Under the pieces are notes generated by a model. That model was not told the DNA's origin and did no database searches. It saw only the letters and a list, made by a program, of their open reading frames with translations. Shown here piece after piece: positions 19,424 through 63,693 of a stretch of DNA of 64,000 nucleotides. The first letter of the stretch is position 1, and every line of letters starts with the position of its first letter. Both the position numbers and the translations under genes were made by a program. The stretch is from Bacteroidales bacterium (lineage in GTDB: Bacteria > Bacteroidota > Bacteroidia > Bacteroidales > UBA12077), in contig JAEINU010000001.1 of the NCBI GenBank assembly GCA_016342685.1, forward strand, positions 558,001 to 622,000, in the 5' to 3' direction.

Positions 19424-19426
19424 TTG

Positions 19427-19499
19427 AGCGGGAGACGAAACTCGAATTCGCGACCCTTAGCTTGGAAGGCTAATGCTCTACCAACTGAGCTACTCCCGC
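19427..19499 (-). tRNA. tRNA-Gly (anticodon TCC)
   Basis: This 73-nt gene folds as a cloverleaf. The acceptor is GCGGGAG paired with CTCCCGC, the D-arm contains TAGCTCAGTTGGTAGAGC, and the anticodon stem-loop TTAGC-CTTCCAA-GCTAA has anticodon TCC. The T-arm contains TTCGAGT. CCA is not encoded. It is the last of three tRNAs on this strand. Confidence 0.95.
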
Positions 19500-19517
19500 A
19501 ATCTGAAATTTATTAAG

Positions 19518-19600
19518 TGGGGAGAGCAGGATTCGAACCTACGAAGGCGTACGCCAGCAGAGTTACAGTCTGCCCCAGTTGGCCACTTTGGTATCTCCCC
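19518..19600 (-). tRNA. tRNA-Tyr (anticodon GTA)
   Basis: This 83-nt gene has a long variable arm, as expected for bacterial tRNA-Tyr. The acceptor is GGGGAGA/TCTCCCC, the anticodon loop is CTGTAAC (GTA) and the T-loop is TTCGAAT. CCA is not encoded. Confidence 0.95.
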
Positions 19601-19620
19601 AAAAACATTTCAATACATTG

Positions 19621-19694
19621 AGCCGATAGGCGGATTCGAACCGTCGACCTGCTGATTACAAATCAGCTGCTCTGACCAACTGAGCTACATCGGC
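19621..19694 (-). tRNA. tRNA-Thr (anticodon TGT)
   Basis: This 74-nt cloverleaf has acceptor GCCGATG/TATCGGC with one G-U pair. The anticodon stem is GCTGA/TCAGC around loop TTTGTAA (TGT), and the T-loop is TTCGAAT. It is the first gene of the Thr-Tyr-Gly operon. That order is the same as the ancestral thrU-tyrU-glyT arrangement. Confidence 0.95.
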
Positions 19695-53092: not shown

Positions 53093-54634
53093 TTAAGGAT
53101 TTTGATCGGTTGCTTGATTCATGTTAATATTTCCATCAAATTCCTTTTGAGGAATCATCATAATCCATTCCCATGATTCAGGATCAGTAATTGTTAGTTG
53201 AATTGAGTGATTCGATCCTGCATAAGCCCTGTCAAAACCGGTTTTTAATCTTTCAATATCAAAAACTCTAAATCCTTCTCCCCACAATTCTATTCTTCTT
53301 TGCAATATAATAAGGTCTAATAGATTGTTTACAGGACCCGCTGTTCCTAAACTTAGAGTATTCCCGCTGGGAATTGCGGCAAGAGTTGCAGCAAAATTTG
53401 GATCTTTGTATCCAACTACATCGTCTAATAATTCTCTAGCTGTTGTGTAGCTCGTTAACATACACCTGGCTTCGGCTTCAATTAAATACATTTCGGCCAT
53501 TCTCATATACAGTAAATCGGATGACCAACTACCTGCCTGTTCTATGGTAAATTTAATTTGATTATACCTAAAGTCGGGTCCGGTAGCATCATCTGCAGAG
53601 GTATTAGGATCTACAAACCAATCTTTACGCACATCATTTGCGTCTATTTGATCATATAACCATCTCGATACGCATTTTCGTGAATCTTGAGCATATCCGC
53701 CTGCTCCAGCATCCATGTGTGTCCAAAAGCCAGTCCACGAAAGTGTTTGTTCATCATTAACCTCAGATGCCCACATCCATTCTTGATTTGAAACAGAGTT
53801 GAATCCTGTATACACATCAGCTGTAGACATTAAGCTAACACCTGGTTTCCCTCTTGCAAAAGAAGCGTTAGTTGCCGCTGTATTCCAATCTTCCTGTGTT
53901 AGTGCAACTCGTGCTTTTAATCCGTAAGCTACATACAAATCGATATGAGAAATATGATATTGAGATGAGGCGCTTTGAAATAATGTAATTGCTTCATCTA
54001 AATCTGAATTGATTTGCGTGTAAACTTCTTCTACAGTTCCTCTGCCTTTTCCTTCGGTATCTTTATTTGTAGGTTCAGTATATAATGGAACGCCGGGATC
54101 ACTCTGGTGACCAATATAGGTTCTTTGATATAATCGTATTAAATTGAAATACGAACTTGCGCGTAAAGCAAGAGCTTGCGCCTTAATACTATTTCTATCA
54201 TTATCGTCACCTGTTGTATTATCGATATTGGCAAGTATAAAATTGGCATTATTAATAAATTTGTAATGCATATTCCACCATGCGTATGGTCTGTCGCCGG
54301 TGCTATTTACCTCACTGCGAACCCAATAGTTGTAGTCGTACCAAAACCAAGCAGAACCACCTTCATTTTGCGACATGTCATCACCAAAAAGATCAACAGC
54401 CAAACCTAAAGCTGCAACACCAGCATTTTCATCTTCGAAGTATTCGACCCATTCGCTGCCATCAACAAAAAATGCTCTATACATTCCATTTAAAGCAGTA
54501 AATGCGTTTTCTACAGTTGTAAAAACTGTTTTTTCGTCGGCCTTATTTGTTGGCACTGTTTCTAAAACATCATCACGACAAGATAGTAGCGCGAAGATTA
54601 ATATAACCGAATATATTATTTTTTTCATTTTCAT
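53093..54634 (-). CDS. SusD/RagB-family nutrient-binding lipoprotein
   Basis: This 513-aa lipoprotein has lipobox A-L-L-S-C. The N-terminus T-V-E-N-A-F-T-A-L-N-G-M-Y and the TPR-like helical region are typical of SusD; so are the R-A-x-x-Y-F-N-L-I-R-L-Y-Q-R-T-Y near 165 and W-G-E-G-F-R-V-F-D-I-E-R near 450. With SusC it forms the outer-membrane importer lid. It is cotranscribed with susC (11-bp gap). No glycosidase or regulator gene is adjacent. Confidence 0.93.
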   Translation of the reverse strand: MKMKKIIYSVILIFALLSCRDDVLETVPTNKADEKTVFTTVENAFTALNGMYRAFFVDGSEWVEYFEDENAGVAALGLAVDLFGDDMSQNEGGSAWFWYDYNYWVRSEVNSTGDRPYAWWNMHYKFINNANFILANIDNTTGDDNDRNSIKAQALALRASSYFNLIRLYQRTYIGHQSDPGVPLYTEPTNKDTEGKGRGTVEEVYTQINSDLDEAITLFQSASSQYHISHIDLYVAYGLKARVALTQEDWNTAATNASFARGKPGVSLMSTADVYTGFNSVSNQEWMWASEVNDEQTLSWTGFWTHMDAGAGGYAQDSRKCVSRWLYDQIDANDVRKDWFVDPNTSADDATGPDFRYNQIKFTIEQAGSWSSDLLYMRMAEMYLIEAEARCMLTSYTTARELLDDVVGYKDPNFAATLAAIPSGNTLSLGTAGPVNNLLDLIILQRRIELWGEGFRVFDIERLKTGFDRAYAGSNHSIQLTITDPESWEWIMMIPQKEFDGNINMNQATDQNP

Positions 54635-54645
54635 AATTTTTATTT

Positions 54646-57600
54646 CTAAAATTTAATATCAATTCCAGCAGATAAAGTCTTTAATGGAACGTACTCATAG
54701 TTCTGACTTCCAGCAAAGTTATATTGGGGATCCATACCTTTTAGTTTAGTAAATAACGCAAGGTTATCTGCAGTAATAAATACTCTTAATGAGTTTACTC
54801 TAATTTTCTCAACTAAATTGTCTGGGAAGGTATAGCCTAAGCTGATATTTTTAATGCTTAAGTATGAGGCGTCAATTAATCGGTCATTTGTTGTATAATT
54901 AATTTTACCGTGAACTAGACGTGGTACATCAGTTACATCTCCAGGCTCTTGCCATCTTCTTTCAACGTCGGTATGGAAATTATCTCCCGCATTACGAGTT
55001 GAGAATAAGGAGCTATAAACATTATCTAATACATAACCTCCAACAGAATATGTTAAAAGAATTGATAAATCAACACCCTTATAACTGAAATTATTGTTAA
55101 TGCTTCCATAAAAATCAGGAATTCTGCTTCCATGAATCTCCTTATTAGCAGCTGCTTCATTGTAACTATCAGTAATTCTTTCTTGAATGATTATATTGCC
55201 ACTACCATCGTCAACTTCTTCTTTAATTAAATAGAGCTGATTTCCAGTTGCAGGGTCAACTCCTGCTGATGTAGGAAGGTAAAATGAATTAATTGGTTCT
55301 CCTTTTTTAATTATAAAACTTCCAGTAACCAATTCCTGACCTTCTGTAACAAGTTCAGTAATTTCATTTCTTACATAACTTAACTGGGTTGTAAAAGTCC
55401 ATTTAAAATCACCCTTAAATAACTGTGCAGATAAATCAAAATCCATTCCTTTATTTACCATTTCTCCTATATTATCCCAGTATCCGTTAAAACCTGTTGA
55501 TGTGGCTAGGGGTCTGTATAATAATAAGTCGGATGTGGTTTTGTGATAATACTCAGCACCAAAAGAAATGCGATCAAATAAAAGAGTTTCAATACCTATA
55601 TTGAAATTTTTATTCTTTTCCCATTCTACTTCTTTATTTTCTAAAGATTCTAGCCATACGCCGCCATAACCTGCATTTGGATATTCTGATGAATAGAAAC
55701 TTTGCCATACATAGTAATTGGCAGGATTATCTTCAAAACTAGATGAGCCATCATCAATATTTAGAATGGCATCGTTACCTTGTGAGCCGTAACTAGCTTT
55801 AAATGTTGCATTTGTTAGCCAATTGTAGGGTTGCATAAAGTTTTCTTCGCTTAATCTCCACGATGCACCAGCAGACCAGAATTGCCCCCATCTAACTTTT
55901 TTATAGAATCTTGATGAGCCATCTGTTCTCCAGCTTAATGAAACATAATATTTATTAGAATAATCATAATTCAATCTACTTAAATAGGATTCAATTTTAT
56001 AAGTATGTGTAAATGAGCTTGCACCTGTAGTAGTTGCAGCACCATCAAGTTCAGTTAATCCTTCAAACAAATAATTTTGTTTCTCAGCATAAAATCTTGA
56101 ATACTTATAATCGTAATATTCGTGTCCTGCTAGTAAATCTATTGTATGGTTATCTAAAGATTTATTATAATTTAGTAATTCATTTAAAGTGTAACTCAAT
56201 GTTCTAAAGTTCGTTTTGTAACCTGCGCCGTGAATTGCAGAAGCATCACCATGTAACGGGTTGTTGTATATTAATCTATCTGCTCCGTTATAGTCAAATC
56301 CGAAATTAACAGTGAATTTAATGTCTTTAAGTACGGGAATTTCTTTTTCGGTATCAAGGTCAAAGTATATTCTACTACTTAAATTATCGGAATTTAATGA
56401 ACGTGAATCATCAAATAGAGTAGCAATACTATTGAAGTTATTAGCATATGGTCTGGTTTCTCCATAATCGAATTTTTTTTCACCATCTGCATCATAAACA
56501 AAACTACCATCGGGATTTCTTTCATAAACAGGATAAATAGGTGCTATTGCTAATGTTGAAAACCACACATTATTGTATCCTGTTCCTATATTTGATAAAT
56601 AATTTTGTTCGGTTAATGAGTAATTGGTGTTCATACCTACTTTTAACCATTCCTTTAATTTAGAGTCAAGATTTAATCGGGCAGAATATCTATTAAAATT
56701 TGAATTTGCAACAATACCTTTGTCATCAAGATAACTTAAGGAAATTAGATATTGATTTTTTTCGTTTCCACCATTTATACTCAACTGATATTCTTGCCGT
56801 AAATTATCATCTCTTAAAGTTTCATCAAACCATTTGTCATGATATTTTAGGGAAGCATTATCCACTACCTTTCCTGTTGCTGGATCAATTAATAATTCAG
56901 AACTAACATTAAAGGGATTGTAAACTTCTCCACCTAATCGTTCCATGTAACTTTGTGTTGTGACATCACCATTTAAAGCTAAATTTGTTGCTTCTGCTTC
57001 GGTACTTCCATCAGCTAAAAAGGAATTCTTATAAGATTCATAAAAAAGTTCCATATAAGTTCTTTCATCAACAGTTGAATAGTTTTCTACAGAAGGAGAA
57101 GAAGTTCCAAAGGTTGCTTTGAAATTTATTTCGGGTTCGCCCTTAGAGCCTTTCTTAGTCGTAATAATTATAACTCCATTAGCACCTCTGGCGCCATAAA
57201 GTGCCGAAGCCGATGCATCTTTTAATACTGACATGGATTTAATATCATTAGGGTTGATACTATTAATGTTGCCATCATAAGGAATTCCATCTACTACATA
57301 AAGTGGTTCATTTGACGCATTAATTGAGCCAAATCCACGGATTCTAATATTTAAATCTGATCCTGGTTGTCCACCTCCAGATGTGGTCTGAATACCAGGG
57401 ATAACTCCCTCCAAGGCTTTTGTGGCAGATGAAACATTTCTTCTTTCAATTGTTTGATTATCTACCATTTTAGCAGAACCGGTAAAGGATTCTTTTTTAC
57501 TTGTACCGTACGCAATAACTATTACTTCGTCCATTTCAAGGATTTCTTCATCCATAATAACATCAATAATAGTTCGTCCATTAATAGGTTCAATCTTTAA

Positions 57601-57840
57601 TTTCATTCCAACAGCAGTAAATAATAAATTTTGAGTATTTCCAGGTACTGTCAAATTGAAGTTCCCATCAATATCGGTTGCTGTTCCGATTGTTTCCATG
57701 TTTTGTGCAACCACAGAAACCCCAGGAATAGGTAATCCATCTTTTGAACTGGTTACCTTTCCTGTAATCTGCACTTGGGCATGTAAAGTTTGAAAACTTA
57801 CAAGCAACAAGAATGCAAGTAACATTTTTAATTTTCTCAT
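54646..57840 (-). CDS. SusC/RagA-family TonB-dependent transporter
   Basis: This 1064-aa protein has a signal peptide (about 1-21) and a carboxypeptidase-like beta-sandwich (G-K-V-T-S-S-K-D-G-L-P-I-P-G-V-S-V) at 26-100. The TonB-box region is followed by a plug with S-A-L-Y-G-A-R-G-A-N-G-V-I-I-I-T-T-K-K-G near 210. A 22-strand barrel follows, ending S-A-G-I-D-I-K-F. It imports oligosaccharides or peptides with the SusD lid. No anti-sigma/ECF pair or hybrid sensor lies next to it, so control may act through the operator-like repeats upstream. Confidence 0.93.
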   Translation of the reverse strand: MRKLKMLLAFLLLVSFQTLHAQVQITGKVTSSKDGLPIPGVSVVAQNMETIGTATDIDGNFNLTVPGNTQNLLFTAVGMKLKIEPINGRTIIDVIMDEEILEMDEVIVIAYGTSKKESFTGSAKMVDNQTIERRNVSSATKALEGVIPGIQTTSGGGQPGSDLNIRIRGFGSINASNEPLYVVDGIPYDGNINSINPNDIKSMSVLKDASASALYGARGANGVIIITTKKGSKGEPEINFKATFGTSSPSVENYSTVDERTYMELFYESYKNSFLADGSTEAEATNLALNGDVTTQSYMERLGGEVYNPFNVSSELLIDPATGKVVDNASLKYHDKWFDETLRDDNLRQEYQLSINGGNEKNQYLISLSYLDDKGIVANSNFNRYSARLNLDSKLKEWLKVGMNTNYSLTEQNYLSNIGTGYNNVWFSTLAIAPIYPVYERNPDGSFVYDADGEKKFDYGETRPYANNFNSIATLFDDSRSLNSDNLSSRIYFDLDTEKEIPVLKDIKFTVNFGFDYNGADRLIYNNPLHGDASAIHGAGYKTNFRTLSYTLNELLNYNKSLDNHTIDLLAGHEYYDYKYSRFYAEKQNYLFEGLTELDGAATTTGASSFTHTYKIESYLSRLNYDYSNKYYVSLSWRTDGSSRFYKKVRWGQFWSAGASWRLSEENFMQPYNWLTNATFKASYGSQGNDAILNIDDGSSSFEDNPANYYVWQSFYSSEYPNAGYGGVWLESLENKEVEWEKNKNFNIGIETLLFDRISFGAEYYHKTTSDLLLYRPLATSTGFNGYWDNIGEMVNKGMDFDLSAQLFKGDFKWTFTTQLSYVRNEITELVTEGQELVTGSFIIKKGEPINSFYLPTSAGVDPATGNQLYLIKEEVDDGSGNIIIQERITDSYNEAAANKEIHGSRIPDFYGSINNNFSYKGVDLSILLTYSVGGYVLDNVYSSLFSTRNAGDNFHTDVERRWQEPGDVTDVPRLVHGKINYTTNDRLIDASYLSIKNISLGYTFPDNLVEKIRVNSLRVFITADNLALFTKLKGMDPQYNFAGSQNYEYVPLKTLSAGIDIKF

Positions 57841-58357: not shown

Positions 58358-58744
58358 TTAATCTATTAATTTTATAGGTTGGTTGTTGTCATCAACTGCT
58401 GCAAAAAAGAAACTTCCACTAACAGCTAGTTCTCTATTTTCGGTATATTTTTGTTCAATATATATTTGGACTTTAATCTCAAGTTTAACAGAACCTATAT
58501 TTTTAACTGTTCCAACCAGTTCTGCTATTGTGCCATATGGAATAGGTTTTTTAAAATCAATTTTGCCCGTAGAAATTGTAACTACTTTCTTGCGACAAAA
58601 ACGTGTGGCTGTAATATATGCAACTTCGTCCATCCATTGTAATGCAATTCCACCAAATAGTGTGTTATGATCGTTAATCAGATTCTTAAATACAATTTTA
58701 ACCTGTCTTGTTTCTGATTTATTTATTTGTTCTTCGATATTCAT
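58358..58744 (-). CDS. Hotdog-fold acyl-CoA thioesterase
   Basis: This 128-aa protein has N-D-H-N-T-L-F-G-G-I-A-L-Q-W-M-D-E-V-A at 24-42 (catalytic Asp39) and D-F-K-K-P-I-P-Y-G near 67. These are the YciA/ACOT-type hotdog thioesterase signatures. It likely hydrolyses short or medium acyl-CoAs. It is transcribed divergently from the DUF134 operon and shares a spacer containing a TATATTTG -7 box and an inverted repeat. Confidence 0.83.
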   Translation of the reverse strand: MNIEEQINKSETRQVKIVFKNLINDHNTLFGGIALQWMDEVAYITATRFCRKKVVTISTGKIDFKKPIPYGTIAELVGTVKNIGSVKLEIKVQIYIEQKYTENRELAVSGSFFFAAVDDNNQPIKLID

Positions 58745-58778: not shown

Positions 58779-58809
58779 TTTGCATTATGAACATAAGTTC
58801 ATAACTTTG
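58779..58809 (+). promoter_or_regulatory. Promoter of the DUF134-NifX-MinD operon
   Basis: TTTG (58779-58782), 19-bp spacing and TAACTTTG (58802-58809) make a strong -33/-7 pair. The inferred leader before the GTG start is about 25 nt. Confidence 0.7.
58786..58803. promoter_or_regulatory. Operator-like palindrome TATGAAC-ATAA-GTTCATA
   Basis: Perfect 7-bp arms with a 4-bp spacer lie between the -33 and -7 boxes of the plus-strand operon and over the -33 region of the divergent thioesterase. They are placed to control both directions. Confidence 0.6.
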
Positions 58810-58836: not shown

Positions 58837-59292
58837 GTGCCACGACCTAAGAATAATAGAATTGTACATGAACCGCCAATTTTTACTGATTTTAAACCAA
58901 TTGGGGTAAAAGGAGTTGCTCTTGAGCAAGTTCTTTTAAATTTAGATGAGTTTGAAGCTTTTCGATTAGCTGATCATTTAGGTTTATCACATGAAGAGGC
59001 TGCTGGAGAAATGGAAATATCACGTCCTACATTTACTAGACTCATTGAAAAGGCAAGAAAGAAAGTTGCCGAATTTGTAATTGAAGGGAAAATGTTGAGC
59101 ATTGATGGTGGAAATATTCATTTCAGAAATAATATTATAAAATGCCAGAGTTGCGGACATATGTTCAAAACTAAATTTAATGATATAATTACAGAGTGTC
59201 CAGCATGTCATTCTGAAAATTTATTGAATCTCGCAGGTGGTTTTGGACATGGTAAATGCTGTAGTCACAGAAATCAACAAAAAGGGAGGTAA
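58837..59292 (+). CDS. DUF134 HTH/zinc-ribbon regulator
   Basis: This 151-aa protein starts at GTG 58837 (M-P-R-P-K-N-N-R); the upstream frame to 58708 is AT-rich noise. The sigma-region-4-like HTH reads L-D-E-F-E-A-F-R-L-A-D-H-L-G-L-S-H-E-E-A-A and I-S-R-P-T-F-T-R-L-I-E-K-A. The C-terminus has C-Q-S-C-G-H ... C-P-A-C-H, a zinc ribbon. DUF134 proteins are often linked to NifX/MinD gene clusters and are probable regulators. It is the first gene of this operon, behind the palindromic promoter. Confidence 0.87.
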   Translation: MPRPKNNRIVHEPPIFTDFKPIGVKGVALEQVLLNLDEFEAFRLADHLGLSHEEAAGEMEISRPTFTRLIEKARKKVAEFVIEGKMLSIDGGNIHFRNNIIKCQSCGHMFKTKFNDIITECPACHSENLLNLAGGFGHGKCCSHRNQQKGR

Positions 59293-59294
59293 TT

Positions 59295-59582
59295 ATGCCA
59301 AGAAGAGATCAAACAGGTCCCGAAGGAATGGGACAAATGACAGGACGACGCATGGGAATATGCGCTGGAGGTCAAAAACAGGAATCGTATTTAAATTTTG
59401 GATTAGGAAGAGGATTCCGTGGACGACAAAATATGAGATTTACTTCATCTCATAATCAAACAGATTCTTTACAAAGGAATCAAAACTCTAAAATGTCGAA
59501 TAAGGAATTTATTGAATCCGAAATCGAGAATCTGAAAGAACGCTTACTCGTGTTAGAAAGTGAGCTTGAGAACTTAAGTTAA
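59295..59582 (+). CDS. DUF5320-like small protein
   Basis: This 95-aa protein begins M-P-R-R-D-Q-T-G-P-E-G-M-G-Q-M-T-G-R-R-M-G, the repeated G-P-x-G-M-G/T-G-R N-terminus of DUF5320. The C-terminus is a short coiled coil. It overlaps no gene but starts 2 bp after the DUF134 stop. A GGGAGG stretch at the end of that gene acts as an unusually strong ribosome site for this phylum. The family is found mostly next to NifX/MinD and DUF134 genes; its function is unknown. Confidence 0.78.
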   Translation: MPRRDQTGPEGMGQMTGRRMGICAGGQKQESYLNFGLGRGFRGRQNMRFTSSHNQTDSLQRNQNSKMSNKEFIESEIENLKERLLVLESELENLS

Positions 59583-59597
59583 AATTGTGGTTTAGTT

Positions 59598-59664
59598 AAG
59601 ACCATTAGCAACTTGTGATATCATAGTTTAGTTTGGTTTAGTATTTCATAAAGCTAATGGTCTT
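59598..59664 (+). other. Long intra-operon stem-loop
   Basis: A 12-bp perfect stem AAGACCATTAGC / GCTAATGGTCTT with a 43-nt loop sits between DUF5320 and the 57-aa gene. There is no strong U tract, so it is more likely an RNA processing or attenuation structure than a terminator. Confidence 0.55.
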
Positions 59665-59684
59665 TCTTTAAAAATAAACTAAAT

Positions 59685-59858
59685 ATGGGTAAGGGAAGAA
59701 ATAAAGGAGGTGCATTTGGTCCCGGTGGTTTTTGTATTTGCACAAAATGTGGCGAAAAATTACCACACCAACAAGGAGTTAAATGTACAAGTATAAAGTG
59801 TCCCAAGTGCGGACATACAATGATTAGAGAAGAATTATTAAATCAAAATAAACAGTAA
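59685..59858 (+). CDS. Cys-rich 57-aa zinc-ribbon-like peptide
   Basis: This 57-aa protein, M-G-K-G-R-N-K-G-G-A-F-G-P-G-G-F, then carries C-I-C-T-K-C and C-T-S-I-K-C-P-K-C. The Gly-rich start and two Cys clusters suggest metal or cluster binding. It lies between the long stem-loop and the first NifX-like gene, with a 17-bp gap to the next start. It appears to be a small conserved partner of these clusters, though I cannot name a family. Confidence 0.7.
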   Translation: MGKGRNKGGAFGPGGFCICTKCGEKLPHQQGVKCTSIKCPKCGHTMIREELLNQNKQ

Positions 59859-59875
59859 TTATTAAATAGAAAAAA

Positions 59876-60214
59876 ATGAAAAAGAAATTTGCTATACCAA
59901 CACTTAATGAGAAGCTTACAGCACATTTTGGACATTGTGAAAAATTTGCAATTGTTGATGTTGAAGATGATAAAGTGGTAAACGAAGCGTTTATTGTTCC
60001 ACCAGTTCATGAACCTGGTGTATATCCAAAGTTTTTAGCTGATCAGGGAGTTCATGTAATTATTGCTGGTGGAATGGGACAAAAAGCTCAGGATTTATTT
60101 GCAATGAATAACATCGAAGTTCATATGGGTGTTCAGGATGGTTCTCCATCAGAGCTAGTTATGAGTTATTTAAGTAATGAATTACAGACTGGTCAGAATT
60201 TGTGTGATCATTAA
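59876..60214 (+). CDS. NifX/NifB-type iron-molybdenum cofactor domain protein (1)
   Basis: This 112-aa protein begins K-K-F-A-I-P-T-L-N-E-K-L-T-A-H-F-G-H-C-E-K-F-A-I-V. The H-F-G-x-C-x-x-F and V-I-I-A-G-G-M-G patterns near 60-68 are the NifX/NafY-like (Fe-Mo dinitrogenase cofactor) domain, which binds metal-sulfur clusters. No nif genes are present. It resembles the ORP (orange protein) class that carries a Mo-Cu sulfur cluster. Confidence 0.85.
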   Translation: MKKKFAIPTLNEKLTAHFGHCEKFAIVDVEDDKVVNEAFIVPPVHEPGVYPKFLADQGVHVIIAGGMGQKAQDLFAMNNIEVHMGVQDGSPSELVMSYLSNELQTGQNLCDH

Positions 60215-60232
60215 TTAAGATAATATAATATA

Positions 60233-61090
60233 ATGAAAATTGCTATTGCAAGCGGAAAAGGCGGTACAGGAAAAACGACATTGTCGACAAACCTTGCTGC
60301 CTTTTTTGCTGATAAAAACCAAGTTGTTTTGGCTGATTTGGACGTAGAAGAACCTAATTCAGGATTGTTTATAACAGGAAAGACAGAACAAATTGATGTA
60401 AAGTATAAAATGATTCCGGAATGGAATGAAGATACTTGTACATTATGTGGCAAATGCCAAGAGAATTGTAACTTTCATGCAGTGATACGCTTAGGAAGCC
60501 AGATATTGGTATTTCCTGAATTGTGTCATAGCTGTTATGCATGCTCAGAGCTTTGTCCTACAAATTCGCTTCCGATGGTAAAGCAACGCATGGGCGAGTT
60601 GAAACACATTAAAAGTGGAAAGATCGATTTTATCGAAAGTCGTTTGGATATTGGACAGGAGCAAGCTGTTCCATTAATTGGACAAACCATTCATTATATC
60701 GAAAGTAAGTTTCCAAAGAAAACATTGAAAATTTTTGACGCCCCACCAGGAACATCATGTCCTGTTATTGAGGCTACAAAAGATGTTGATTTTGTTATTC
60801 TTGTGACTGAACCAACACCTTTTGGATTACACGATTTAAAGTTAGCTGTGGATACTATGGTTGAATTGGGAAAACCGCATGCAGTAGTAATAAATCGTTA
60901 TGGAATTGGCAACAACGATGTTGTTGATTATTGTGTAGAAAACAATATTCCTATTCTTGCAAAAATTCCTAATAGCAGAAAGTTAGCTGAATTATATTCA
61001 AAGGGAGAGCTAGTTTATAAGGAGCTTCCTGAATTTAAAGAAGAACTTCAGAAAATAGAAACTTACATTTTAAATCTGGAAATAGAATGA
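60233..61090 (+). CDS. MinD/Mrp-type ATPase with two 4Fe-4S ferredoxin motifs (1)
   Basis: This 285-aa protein has a deviant Walker A K-G-G-T-G-K-T-T (9-16). The ferredoxin insert follows, with C69, C72, C75, C79 and C98, C101, C104, C108 (two CxxCxxCxxxC clusters). D-A-P-P-G-T-S-C is the switch II region. The family is MinD/Mrp-like ATPases with a ferredoxin insert, as in archaea and Deltaproteobacteria. It probably couples ATP use to cluster transfer to the neighbouring NifX proteins. Confidence 0.9.
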   Translation: MKIAIASGKGGTGKTTLSTNLAAFFADKNQVVLADLDVEEPNSGLFITGKTEQIDVKYKMIPEWNEDTCTLCGKCQENCNFHAVIRLGSQILVFPELCHSCYACSELCPTNSLPMVKQRMGELKHIKSGKIDFIESRLDIGQEQAVPLIGQTIHYIESKFPKKTLKIFDAPPGTSCPVIEATKDVDFVILVTEPTPFGLHDLKLAVDTMVELGKPHAVVINRYGIGNNDVVDYCVENNIPILAKIPNSRKLAELYSKGELVYKELPEFKEELQKIETYILNLEIE

Positions 61091-61962
61091 AAGAAATTGT
61101 AATTATTTCTGGGAAAGGCGGAACAGGTAAAACTTCTATCACTGCATCGTTTGCTATTTTAGCAGGATCGGAAGCAGTTATAGCAGATTGCGATGTGGAT
61201 GCCGCGGATATGCACTTATTAATGCAACCTGTAATAAAAAAATCAGTAGATTTCTATAGCGGAGTTATTGCTTTAATAGATGAGAATAAATGTACGAATT
61301 GTGGAATATGTGCTGATATATGTAGATTTAACGCCATACCTTTAGTTGATAATCAACATACAGTTAAGGATTTAGATTGTGAAGGATGTGGTTATTGTGC
61401 AAAAGTTTGTCCTGAAAAGGCAATTACAATGTATGAGCAAAATGTGGGCGACTGGTTTATTTCACAAACAAAAATTGAGAATACTTTAGTTCATGCTAAA
61501 TTAGGAATTGGAGCAGAAAACTCTGGAAAACTAGTTGCAAAAGTTAAGAAAGAAGCCAACCAAATAGCCGAGAAGGAAGATAAGGAATACATAATTGTAG
61601 ATGGATCGCCGGGTATCGGATGTCCTGTTGTTTCTTCTTTATCGGGAGCAAATTATGCAGTATTAGTAACAGAGCCTTCCATGTCTGGATTACACGACTT
61701 AAAACGTGTGTACGAACTAGTTAAAAAGTTTAACATTAAGGCGGGTTGTATTATCAATAAGTCGGATATCAATTTAGATATGACAAATAAAGTTATTCAG
61801 TTTTTAAAGGAAGAATCCATCACCCATATCTCAAGTTTACCATACGATGAGAGTTTTACAAAGGCAATGACTGTGGGCGAAACAATTGTTGAATACGATC
61901 ATTCAGAATTGAAAGATCTTCTAGTGAAAAGCTGGGAAATAGTTAAGCTAGAAGTCAATTAA
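61087..61962 (+). CDS. MinD/Mrp-type ATPase with two 4Fe-4S ferredoxin motifs (2)
   Basis: This 291-aa protein overlaps the first ATPase gene by 4 bp (ATGA type). Walker A is K-G-G-T-G-K-T-S, and its eight Cys have the same positions as in the first paralogue (69, 72, 75, 79 and 98, 101, 104, 108). D-G-S-P-G-I-G-C replaces D-A-P-P-G-T-S-C. The two probably act as a heterodimer, an inference from overlap and equal spacing. Confidence 0.9.
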   Translation: MKEIVIISGKGGTGKTSITASFAILAGSEAVIADCDVDAADMHLLMQPVIKKSVDFYSGVIALIDENKCTNCGICADICRFNAIPLVDNQHTVKDLDCEGCGYCAKVCPEKAITMYEQNVGDWFISQTKIENTLVHAKLGIGAENSGKLVAKVKKEANQIAEKEDKEYIIVDGSPGIGCPVVSSLSGANYAVLVTEPSMSGLHDLKRVYELVKKFNIKAGCIINKSDINLDMTNKVIQFLKEESITHISSLPYDESFTKAMTVGETIVEYDHSELKDLLVKSWEIVKLEVN

Positions 61963-61986
61963 ATGAATAATTAAAAATTAGAACAA

Positions 61987-62325
61987 ATGAAAATAGCATT
62001 TACAGCAAAAGGAACCGAATGGAATTCAGAAATGGATCCCCGATTTGGAAGAACAGAATATATTTTGGTTTACGATGATGAAAAAGATGAGTTTACATCA
62101 TATGATAATCGTGAGATAGAGAACGAAGCTCATGGAGCAGGTCCAAAAACATCACAACAATTATTTGAGATGGGACCACAAGTTTTAATTACAGGAAATG
62201 GACCTGGTGGAAATGCTGCTACAGTTTTAGAAAAAGCAGGTATTAAAATTTTTATTGGTGCCGGAACAATGACAGTTAAAGAAGCTTTTGAAGCTTATCA
62301 AAATAATAATTTAAAAGGATTTTAA
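61987..62325 (+). CDS. NifX/NifB-type iron-molybdenum cofactor domain protein (2)
   Basis: This 112-aa protein begins K-I-A-F-T-A-K-G and has D-P-R-F-G-R-T-E-Y-I, then T-G-N-G-P-G-G-N near 70. The D-x-R-F-G-R-x-x-x-x pattern is the second NifX/ORP subtype and lacks the His-Cys pair of the first protein. It sits downstream of the paired ATPases and 3 bp before the FAD protein. The two NifX-like proteins are probably different partners of the ATPases. Confidence 0.85.
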   Translation: MKIAFTAKGTEWNSEMDPRFGRTEYILVYDDEKDEFTSYDNREIENEAHGAGPKTSQQLFEMGPQVLITGNGPGGNAATVLEKAGIKIFIGAGTMTVKEAFEAYQNNNLKGF

Positions 62326-62328
62326 TTT

Positions 62329-63693
62329 ATGAAAACAGATGTTTTAGTTATTGGAAGTAGCGCTGCAGGATTAGTAGCTGCAACAACAGGAAAAAGAATT
62401 TATAAAGATAAAGAGTTTACGGTTGTTACAAAGCAAGCTAAAACACTTATTCCTTGCGGAATTCCATACGTTTTTGGTTCAGTAGGTTCAACAGATAATA
62501 ATATTTTACCAGCTGAGAAAATGTTTGAAGCGAGCGGAATAAAACAAATATATAATGATGTTCAGTCTATTGATCGTGAAAATAAAAGTGTATTACTTGA
62601 AAATGGCGAAGTAATTGAATACGATAAGCTTGTTCTTGGCACAGGATCGAATCCTTACAAACCAGAATGGCTAAAAGGAGTTAATCTAGAGAATGTTTTT
62701 TCTGTGCCAAAGAATAAAGTGTATTTAGATGAAATGCAGTTGAAAATAGAGTCATGTAAAAAGATAATTACTATTGGTGCTGGATTTATTGGTGTTGAAA
62801 TTTCTGATGAATTTGTTAAAGCAAAGAAGGATGTTACACTAATTGAGAAACTTCCGCATATTTTGGGTTTAGCTTTTGATGAAGATGTTTCTATAAAAGC
62901 GGAGACTATACTTAAGGAACGTGGAGTAAATGTAAAGACAGGTGTTGGTGTAAAGGAAATACTTGGTTCAAATAAAGTAGAAGGGGTGTTATTAGATAAT
63001 GGTGAAAAAATTGAAGCAGATGCAATAATACTTTCAATGGGATACAAGCCTAATTCAGAACTTGCTGCTAAATCCGGTTTGGCAATAAGTGACAAAGGTT
63101 TTATTAAGGTAGATGAATATATGCGTACTGAAGATCCTGATGTTTTTGCAGTAGGTGATTGCGCAGAAAAAAGAGATTTTGTAACACGTAAACCTAGTCC
63201 AATAATGTTGGCTTCTACAGCTTGTGCTGAATCTCGAATTGCAGGAATGAACTTATTCAAGTTATCGGCAATCAAAACATTTAGTGGTACTATTTCGATT
63301 TTTTCAACCGCATTGGGAAATACTGGATTTGGTGTTGCAGGATTAACAGAAACAATTGCAAAACAAGAAAATTTTGATTTTGTAACAGGAGTTTTTGAAG
63401 GTATCGACCGACATCCGGGAACACTTTCCGATACTCATACTCAGTTTGTTAAATTGATTGTAGGTAAGGAATCAGGCGTTATTTTAGGTGGCGAAGTTGC
63501 GGGCGGTTTGTCGATTGGTGAATTAACAAATACTATAGGCATTATTATTCAGAACCGAATGACAATTAATTCATTGCTTACAGCACAAATTGGAACACAT
63601 CCATTATTAACTGCTTCTCCTGCTGGATATCCATTAATTAAAGCAGCAGAAAATGCTTCTGGGAAAATAATGTTTACTGAAAAGATTGTTTAA
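62329..63693 (+). CDS. CoA-disulfide-reductase-like FAD oxidoreductase
   Basis: This 454-aa protein has the FAD motif V-I-G-S-S-A-A-G at 7-14, a redox Cys43 in L-I-P-C-G-I-P-Y (as in CoA-disulfide reductase and NADH oxidase) and the NAD motif G-A-G-F-I-G-V-E near 155. F-A-V-G-D-C-A-E is near 275 and a C-terminal dimerisation domain follows. Likely a thiol- or polysulfide-linked NAD(P)H oxidoreductase that donates electrons to the cluster proteins of this operon; partners and substrate are not proven. It is the last gene. Confidence 0.86.
   Translation: MKTDVLVIGSSAAGLVAATTGKRIYKDKEFTVVTKQAKTLIPCGIPYVFGSVGSTDNNILPAEKMFEASGIKQIYNDVQSIDRENKSVLLENGEVIEYDKLVLGTGSNPYKPEWLKGVNLENVFSVPKNKVYLDEMQLKIESCKKIITIGAGFIGVEISDEFVKAKKDVTLIEKLPHILGLAFDEDVSIKAETILKERGVNVKTGVGVKEILGSNKVEGVLLDNGEKIEADAIILSMGYKPNSELAAKSGLAISDKGFIKVDEYMRTEDPDVFAVGDCAEKRDFVTRKPSPIMLASTACAESRIAGMNLFKLSAIKTFSGTISIFSTALGNTGFGVAGLTETIAKQENFDFVTGVFEGIDRHPGTLSDTHTQFVKLIVGKESGVILGGEVAGGLSIGELTNTIGIIIQNRMTINSLLTAQIGTHPLLTASPAGYPLIKAAENASGKIMFTEKIV

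What the first reader, a model, noticed from the sequence alone, without database searches (positions are those of the whole stretch)
58837..63693. ORP-like NifX/MinD-ferredoxin cluster with CoADR-like flavoprotein in a Bacteroidota
Seen: DUF134, DUF5320, a Cys-rich 57-aa peptide, two NifX-domain proteins, two ferredoxin-insert MinD ATPases and a CoADR-like FAD enzyme, all on one strand with gaps of 2 to about 100 bp or small overlap. Known: orange-protein (ORP) operons of Desulfovibrio pair NifX-like ORP with MinD-type ferredoxin ATPases, and ORP carries a Mo-Cu sulfur cluster. Inferred: this cluster makes or repairs a metal-sulfur centre or controls thiol/polysulfide redox, with a new flavin partner and a Bacteroidota-type promoter. 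No nif structural genes are present, so it is not nitrogen fixation.
Basis: partly seen in the sequence, partly recalled or inferred. Interest (0 to 1): 0.82.

Follow-up and report, generated by a model that had tools for sequence, protein, structure and literature searches.

The report
Orange-protein-like gene cluster with DUF134 operator
An anaerobe's operon resembling the orange-protein complex of sulfate reducers is joined to a flavin enzyme, and a shared DNA palindrome, probably read by a regulator of unknown function (DUF134), ties scattered genes of the same kind into one regulon in some related genomes.

Summary
In detail: eight closely packed same-strand genes (DUF134, DUF5320, Cys-rich peptide, NifXa, two ferredoxin-insert MinD ATPases, NifXb, flavoprotein) at the stated coordinates. 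It is a variant of the orange-protein (ORP) system: NifXb matches ORP, NifXa the C-terminal domain of MrpORP, and a relative cluster with a related MinD pair carries a full MrpORP. The flavoprotein is a real but optional partner: in 296 sampled Bacteroidota genomes 6 of 7 with the MinD pair also have it, but 12 of 18 with it lack the pair. It keeps Cys43 but fails the CoA-disulfide reductase cut-offs. New here: a palindrome TGAAC-N4-GTTCA lies between the promoter boxes. In related genomes it also precedes unlinked flavoprotein, CGGC/radical-SAM, DUF89, NifX and MinD genes. DUF134 genes of many Bacteroidota carry such palindromes, whose bases co-vary with one recognition-helix residue, so DUF134 is the likely reader. 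Best reading: metal-sulfur cluster assembly by a NifH-like ATPase heterodimer, with a persulfide- or thiol-reducing flavoprotein. Cluster, substrate and signal are unknown; nif kinship was tested for NifH only.

The parts
58780..58809 (+). Bacteroidota-type promoter: TTG (58780-58782) and TAACTTTG (58802-58809) on either side of the palindrome
   Evidence: TAnnTTTG begins 0-3 nt after the palindrome in 18 of 28 sites that I listed; 0.33% of background 14-nt windows hold it
58788..58801 (.). operator palindrome TGAACATAAGTTCA, likely DUF134 binding site
58837..59292 (+). DUF134 protein (GTG start): helix-turn-helix plus C-terminal Cys pairs; probable autoregulatory repressor
59295..59582 (+). 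DUF5320 small protein
59685..59858 (+). 57-aa Cys-rich peptide; a like stretch is fused to the C-terminus of DUF134 in L020, L021, L027, L039
59876..60214 (+). NifXa, akin to the C-terminal domain of MrpORP
60233..61090 (+). MinD-ferredoxin ATPase a; two 4Fe-4S motifs and invariant Cys176
61087..61962 (+). MinD-ferredoxin ATPase b; two 4Fe-4S motifs and invariant Cys179
61987..62325 (+). NifXb, matches ORP 2wfb, 1rdu and MTH1175 1eo1
62329..63693 (+). FAD flavoprotein with Cys43 and two conserved His-Pro motifs (362-363, 424-425)

Best explanation
This is an unfused, DUF134-controlled version of the ORP system with an added flavoprotein. Mechanism: (1) MinDa and MinDb form an ATP-switched heterodimer; each carries a 2[4Fe-4S] ferredoxin insert, and a cysteine at the NifH bridging-cluster position suggests a shared cluster or thiol at the interface (pairing well supported; cluster inferred). 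(2) The dimer, perhaps with an Mrp/NBP35 protein coded elsewhere, delivers low-potential electrons or Fe-S units to the two NifX proteins, which hold a metal-sulfur cluster (inferred from ORP, IssA and MrpORP). (3) The flavoprotein uses NAD(P)H and Cys43 to reduce a persulfide, polysulfide or disulfide, giving sulfide or free thiols for this chemistry (inferred). (4) DUF134, perhaps with the Cys-rich peptide, binds TGAAC-N4-GTTCA between the promoter boxes and represses the operon until a metal, sulfur or redox signal reaches its cysteines (DNA site supported by sequence; binding, repression and signal inferred).
For: Pairing: genomes with the pair have exactly two matches in 7 of 7, 11 of 11 and 87 of 90; in L032 a and b are one 608-aa protein directly after the flavoprotein. 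Chemistry: the eight ferredoxin cysteines and Cys176/Cys179 are invariant in 37 of 37 and 36 of 36 sequences gathered, and profile alignment puts that Cys on the cysteine of NifH DVLGDVVC (probability 97.7 and 96.7). Fe-S link: L134 codes for an IscU/NifU-like, Mrp and NifX fusion, over the MrpORP cut-off, beside a related MinD pair; MrpORP gives Fe-S to ORP-complex proteins in vitro (PMC6345978, passages). Sulfur link: DsrE within the L009 cluster, methionine-gamma-lyase-like enzymes (below their cut-offs) in L006 and L205. Flavoprotein link: 6 of 7 genomes with the pair against 18 of 296 overall (p 1.4e-7, relatedness ignored) and the same operator before unlinked copies L008 and L028. Regulator: 18 of 34 strict sites in 14 picked genomes lie before module genes; DUF134 helix residue and operator co-vary.
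Against: I found no metal, cluster, binding or expression datum for these very proteins. NifXb has no cysteine. The flavoprotein occurs without the pair in 12 of 18 Bacteroidota genomes (11 of them one family), and 81 of 90 Desulfobacterota genomes with the pair lack it at E 1e-90: it is not essential to the system. Of nine unlinked flavoprotein loci with Bacteroidota or Chlorobiota titles, two have an exact operator upstream, one a one-mismatch site about 290 bp off, six none. Four of the 14 genomes have no strict site before module genes. Variant operators were not found at the clusters L079-L082. No NifH Cys97 equivalent. No separate Mrp gene in the window or the 10 kb after it.
Confidence: 0.5

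Rival explanations
1. Thiol/polysulfide redox homeostasis: the flavoprotein is the working enzyme, and NifX/MinD store or buffer iron and sulfide (IssA-like) or relay electrons when sulfane sulfur is abundant.
For: Cys43 fold shared with persulfide reductases such as A. fulgidus 6pfz (PMC7969121, passages); DsrE and methionine-gamma-lyase-like neighbours; IssA, a NifX-family protein, stores Fe and S as thioferrate (PMC5524996, passages).
Against: No rhodanese domain among the Pfam matches; CoADR cut-offs not met; 81 of 90 Desulfobacterota genomes with the MinD pair lack the flavoprotein; both NifX proteins are 112 aa, without the long IssA tail.
Confidence: 0.22
2. ATP-driven reductase: the MinD pair works like NifH/BchL, pushing electrons uphill to an enzyme not in this operon; NifX proteins and flavoprotein are accessories.
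For: NifH-position Cys and ferredoxin inserts; Foldseek hits of MinDb include NifH (7ut9, 2nip) and BchL (3fwy, 8vqj) after MinD.
Against: I recognised no NifDK-like partner among the genes that I labelled, but did not search for one; no Cys97 equivalent; MinD proteins rank above NifH.
Confidence: 0.13
3. Spatial or cell-division role, as proposed for the Desulfovibrio ORP complex.
For: MinD-type fold; ORP proteins of D. vulgaris were put forward for cell division (PMC6345978, PMC4672049, passages).
Against: Company of sulfur, Fe-S, radical-SAM and flavin genes; the pair is rare in sampled Bacteroidota (7 of 296), unlike a general division function.
Confidence: 0.06
4. The palindrome is read by another regulator, for example an ArsR/SmtB protein (whose operators, from recall, look alike), not by DUF134.
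For: Resemblance to ArsR/SmtB sites is recalled and untested; clusters L131 and L138 carry the site while the DUF134 gene of their genomes lies on another contig or about 6 kb away.
Against: DUF134 genes carry the site at a near-constant distance wherever they lie, and helix residue and half-site base co-vary.
Confidence: 0.1

Closest known systems
ORP complex of Desulfovibrio vulgaris (Orp3, Orp4, Orp5, Orp8, Orp9/MrpORP)
   Same: Two MinD-type ATPases with two 4Fe-4S motifs each, an ORP-like NifX protein, a MrpORP-type NifX domain; a small Cys-rich protein is present in both (kinship not tested)
   Different: NifX domain not fused to Mrp; palindrome, DUF134 and a -33/-7 promoter in place of sigma54 with DVU2106; DUF5320 and flavoprotein added
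CoA-disulfide / NADH persulfide reductases (6pfz, 3cgb, 4fx9)
   Same: FAD/NAD fold and active-site Cys43 (PCGIPY)
   Different: Scores far below curated cut-offs; no rhodanese domain; His-Pro motifs at 362 and 424 where 6pfz has Tyr-bearing stretches
NifH/BchL Fe proteins
   Same: P-loop fold; Cys aligned with that of DVLGDVVC
   Different: Ferredoxin insert, no Cys97 equivalent, a/b pair
IssA thioferrate storage protein
   Same: NifX-family domain
   Different: No long C-terminal tail; sits with paired ATPases
AF2378-AF2380 of Archaeoglobus fulgidus
   Same: NifX and CbiA-type genes together, reported as highly expressed and linked to D. vulgaris genes of syntrophic growth (PMC3949148, passage)
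   Different: Archaeal; flavoprotein and DUF134 not mentioned in the passage seen

Membership tests
ORP complex | NifX-type protein akin to ORP | tested here: met
   NifXb vs 2wfb E 5.2e-10
ORP complex | two MinD-like ATPases, each with two 4Fe-4S motifs | tested here: met
ORP complex | fused MrpORP | tested here: not met
   NifXa stands alone, no Mrp in window or next 10 kb; a full MrpORP sits in relative cluster L134
ORP complex | small Fe-S protein Orp5 | tested here: inconclusive
   a Cys-rich 57-aa peptide is present; not compared with Orp5
ORP complex | sigma54 control by a DVU2106-type activator | tested here: not met
   -33/-7 boxes with palindrome; no such activator among the labelled genes of the cluster and after it
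ORP complex | Mo-Cu sulfide cluster and protein complex | not testable with these tools
   needs protein
CoA-disulfide reductase | curated family score | tested here: not met
   TIGR03385 227 bits, cut-off 578.8; NF007123 235, cut-off 458
CoA-disulfide reductase | single active-site Cys near position 43 | tested here: met
   59 of 59 distinct sequences
CoA-disulfide reductase | C-terminal Tyr residues of the active site (their importance is recalled) | tested here: not met
   alignment to 6pfz: AYAPPYS faces GTHPLLT; RAHYYP faces RHPGTL
NifH Fe protein | curated family score | tested here: not met
   two weak matches, none over the cut-off, in the genome
NifH Fe protein | Cys132-type ligand after switch II (its role is recalled) | tested here: met
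NifH Fe protein | Cys97-type ligand (recalled) | tested here: not met
   no Cys in MinDa between 108 and 176
Nitrogen fixation (nif) system | NifDK genes | not tested
   only NifH was searched

The most novel reading that the evidence does not exclude
A cofactor factory without nitrogenase: a NifH-like a/b ATPase pair, NifX carriers, an Mrp or IscU-Mrp-NifX scaffold, a radical-SAM enzyme, a cysteine/methionine lyase and a persulfide-reducing flavoprotein, held in one DUF134 regulon, build and insert a still unknown heterometal-sulfur cofactor in anaerobes.
Probability: 0.15. Interest if true: 0.88.

Novelty: new variant of a known kind. Interest (0 to 1): 0.62.

Why it matters
The MinD pair of the ORP system is common in some anaerobes (90 of 148 sampled Desulfobacterota genomes), while its function is unsettled in the papers seen. 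An operator that marks its genes even when they are scattered offers a way to list its parts by sequence, and adds a flavoprotein, CGGC, radical-SAM, DUF89 and a sulfur-lyase as candidates. It also gives DUF134, a family of unknown function, a concrete DNA target with a residue-to-base rule that one gel-shift experiment can test. In the library searched, two papers mention DUF5320 and two DUF134; I did not open them, and by title they treat other subjects. Three spellings of the palindrome gave no paper.

Tried and rejected
Rejected: that the flavoprotein always follows the second NifX; that it is a CoA-disulfide reductase; that the module is plainly a nif system (no NifH over the cut-off; NifDK not tested); that the radical-SAM partner is NifB (the best matches of the four radical-SAM proteins scanned are tungsten-cofactor maturase, PFL activase and viperin-type models, all far below cut-off; no NifB model at E 1e-6).

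Led nowhere or against me: promoter and terminator scans were at shuffle level (59 against 56.3, and 5 against 4.9). The DUF134 model was only fair (pLDDT 70.7) and Foldseek gave no match at E 0.001; short local matches to DeoR and sigma region 4 DNA-binding domains are suggestive only. A one-mismatch pattern search of the own genome was hardly richer than its control (15 against 12, both strands counted). Variant operators TGTGC and TGAGC were not found at the flavoprotein-MinD clusters L079-L082. In family f18, probably green sulfur bacteria, 29 DUF134 loci had no such palindrome upstream (L224 has TGAACTGCCGTTCA, but inside the called gene), and 11 genomes have the flavoprotein without the MinD pair. 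Two other NifX genes of the genome (L053, L054) have no neighbours matching the module references.

Selection to bear in mind: the 12 genomes, the 10 and the 14 were picked by me from flavoprotein loci and the own genome; the 20 stretches were picked from the non-f18 genomes (one gene, L269, had been fetched as L239). The 28 sites were listed by hand. Sorting the 34 sites into module and other was done by eye. Relatedness was not corrected in any p value.
Full report
WHAT IS THERE. DUF134 starts at a GTG (58837). The contig continues past the window: 310 bp after the flavoprotein, on the same strand, come a UbiE-type methyltransferase, a metallo-beta-lactamase-fold protein, a DUF89/ARMT1 protein, DUF4405, a CGGC protein and an AAA ATPase. 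Metallo-beta-lactamase, DUF89 and CGGC genes recur beside relatives of this cluster. A thioesterase gene is divergent upstream (58358-58744).

KINSHIP. NifXb matches the orange protein 2wfb, 1rdu and MTH1175 1eo1 (E 5e-10 to 2e-13). NifXa matches the C-terminal domain of the MrpORP model over most of its length (122.6 bits, model positions 264-365 of 365). The MinD pair has the two ferredoxin motifs reported for Orp3 and Orp4 (PMC6345978, passages). In L134 a 547-aa protein joins IscU/NifU-like, Mrp and NifX parts and scores 491.6 bits for MrpORP (cut-off 450), in one run with relatives of MinDa and MinDb. So the window cluster is an unfused relative of the ORP system.

THE PAIR. Genomes with the pair have exactly two matches in 7 of 7, 11 of 11 and 87 of 90. 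In L032 both are fused as a-b directly after the flavoprotein. All eight ferredoxin cysteines are invariant, as is one more cysteine just after switch II: Cys176 in 37 of 37 MinDa and Cys179 in 36 of 36 MinDb gathered from the loci then held. Profile alignment with NifH and BchL-type relatives places it on the cysteine of DVLGDVVC (probability 97.7 and 96.7); that this is the NifH bridging-cluster ligand Cys132 is recalled. There is no equivalent of the second NifH ligand. The MinDb model (pLDDT 91.0) matches MinD first, then NifH, BchL and ApbC.

THE FLAVOPROTEIN. One scan found 47 loci, 41 of them at 56-78% identity in many phyla, archaea included, and 6 distant ones left aside. Nine of the 41 hold the MinD pair in the fetched stretch (L006, L009, L020, L021, L027, L030, L032, L037, L045; a 33-bit match in L038 was not counted); many stretches are cut by contig ends. 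It follows NifXb directly in three (L006, L009, L045) and Mrp in three (L020, L021, L027); in G320 it lies between the two MinD genes. Of 12 genomes that I picked from loci without linked MinD genes, 11 carry the pair elsewhere; the twelfth is a 0.8-Mb archaeal bin. In 296 sampled Bacteroidota genomes 18 have the flavoprotein at E 1e-100, 7 the pair at E 1e-25 and 6 both (p 1.4e-7); in 5 of the 6 they lie within 10 kb. In 148 Desulfobacterota genomes 90 have the pair (E 1e-20), 9 the flavoprotein (E 1e-90), all 9 among the 90 (p 0.01), linked in one of 9 (G320). So it is an optional partner. Eleven of the 12 Bacteroidota genomes with flavoprotein alone belong to one family (f18), probably green sulfur bacteria judging from NifH and BchL-type genes in four of them and genome size (inference). 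Cys43 and His362-Pro363 are invariant in 59 of 59 distinct sequences; His424 is kept in 56 of 57 that reach it. Against 6pfz, AYAPPYS and RAHYYP are replaced by GTHPLLT and RHPGTL. CoADR cut-offs are missed by a wide margin. I call it a Cys43 His-Pro flavoprotein, substrate unknown.

THE OPERATOR. Between the TTG and TAACTTTG boxes of the window lies TGAACATAAGTTCA. The same palindrome, with at most one mismatch in its arms, sits before DUF134 in L006, L009, L020, L021, L027, L039 and L045, and before the Cloacimonadota cluster L132. It also precedes clusters that begin with other genes (L131, DUF5320-like; L138, NifX). Of nine unlinked flavoprotein loci with Bacteroidota or Chlorobiota titles, L008 and L028 have it exactly, L040 has a one-mismatch site about 290 bp upstream, and L005, L007, L010, L012, L017 and L043 have none in the 190 bp looked at; in L039 the flavoprotein follows a DUF134 gene that has it. 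In ten genomes of unlinked loci, eight have DUF134; eight of the nine genes over the cut-off have the site with at most one mismatch, the paralogue L165 does not, nor does the fragment L166.

THE REGULON. In 14 picked genomes WTGAACNNNNGTTCAW occurs 34 times, the reversed control 8 times. Eighteen of the 34 lie within about 200 bp before module genes, allowing for gene starts called too early (several sites overlap the first codons of the longest frame); of the other 16, fifteen lie in reading frames and one between genes (sorted by eye). In G455 all four sites are module sites, at four unlinked places: DUF134-NifXa-methionine-gamma-lyase-like, DUF5320-Cys peptide-MinDa-MinDb, the flavoprotein, and CGGC-radical SAM. 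In G306 four of five are: DUF89-radical SAM, DUF5320, NifX-MinD-Mrp, and the flavoprotein. In the window's own genome there are two: the cluster and one inside a gene. Four of the 14 genomes (G456, G457, G459, G466) have no module site by this strict pattern, though each has a near-match before DUF134.

DUF134 AS READER. DUF134 is found over its cut-off in 75 of 296 Bacteroidota genomes, far more than the 7 with the MinD pair, so it must have other targets too. In 20 stretches around DUF134 genes of non-f18 genomes (my choice), all 20 have a TGnnC-N4-GnnCA-type site 198-248 bp before the helix codon, 18 as exact palindromes, L264 and L266 with one mismatch. Among 1304 genes of the loci held 31 have an exact one in the 130 bp upstream; the 31 include module genes. 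In a fixed window before the helix of all distinct DUF134 rows the site is present in 19 of 21 Thr rows (the other two are cut short), 2 of 3 Ser rows, 13 of 41 Gly rows (the 28 without are 27 of f18 and L037), 3 of 5 Gln rows and 0 of 1 Trp row; the one Ala row is cut in that window, but has TGAGAATATTCTCA closer by. The bases follow the residue x of the helix SRxTF-x-R: Thr or Ser goes with TGAAC on both arms (14 of 21) or on one (7 of 21); Gly with TGAGC on both arms (10 of 13), TGGGC (1), or on one arm (2, one of them a TGAAC/TGAGC hybrid); Ala with TGAGA (1); Gln with TGTGC (3 of 3). Fisher p is 4e-7 for fourth base A against G by residue on the table, with Gln and TGATC rows left out and relatedness ignored. 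The helix begins at residue 63 in the model, so the residue (Thr67) is near its start. The Cys-rich peptide has a counterpart fused to the end of DUF134 in L020, L021, L027 and L039 (E 9e-6 to 5e-8 in a search of 8 sequences; L037 0.004, the other three above 0.05), which suggests that the two act together, for example as sensor.

READING. Put together: a likely repressor with a cysteine-rich part, a NifH-like ATPase heterodimer with built-in ferredoxins, NifX proteins of the kind that hold metal-sulfur clusters (IssA, PMC5524996 passages; MrpORP), and a flavoprotein with a single redox cysteine. Metal-sulfur cluster assembly or repair fits best; thiol and polysulfide control is the main rival. 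Nothing here identifies the metal or the target enzyme. A. fulgidus genes AF2378-AF2380, of the same kind, were reported as highly expressed and linked to D. vulgaris genes of syntrophic growth (PMC3949148, passage; the works it cites were not seen).

KNOWN OR NEW. The ORP system is known. New, as far as the searches made reach, are the flavoprotein partnership, the regulon and the DUF134 operator rule. The library lacks most subscription papers, and most hits were seen as listings only, so prior description cannot be excluded.

Noticed in passing
L134 5308-6951 (-), genome G302: One 547-aa protein joins IscU/NifU-like, Mrp/NBP35 and NifX parts and passes the MrpORP cut-off; a natural scaffold-carrier fusion.
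   Followed up: partly
L032 7422-9248 (+): MinDa and MinDb fused into one 608-aa protein directly after the flavoprotein.
   Followed up: yes
L220-L238, L240-L249 (family f18, probably green sulfur bacteria): DUF134 genes (29 loci) without the palindrome found elsewhere, and in 11 genomes the flavoprotein without the MinD pair; their operator and the flavoprotein's role there are open.
   Followed up: partly
L084 5685, 5711 and 8981: A DUF134 with Ala in the helix has two TGAGA-type palindromes in tandem before its cluster and a third after MinDb.
   Followed up: no
L126 (G353:C133:74960-76318): A flavoprotein reading frame with one in-frame TGA; likewise an in-frame TAA in the DUF134 match L159. 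Broken gene or sequencing error not checked.
   Followed up: no
window 53093-57840 (-): SusD/SusC-like pair upstream (judged from the sequences, no family search), consistent with a Bacteroidota host.
   Followed up: no
window 19426-19694 (-): tRNA-Gly, tRNA-Tyr, tRNA-Thr cluster.
   Followed up: no
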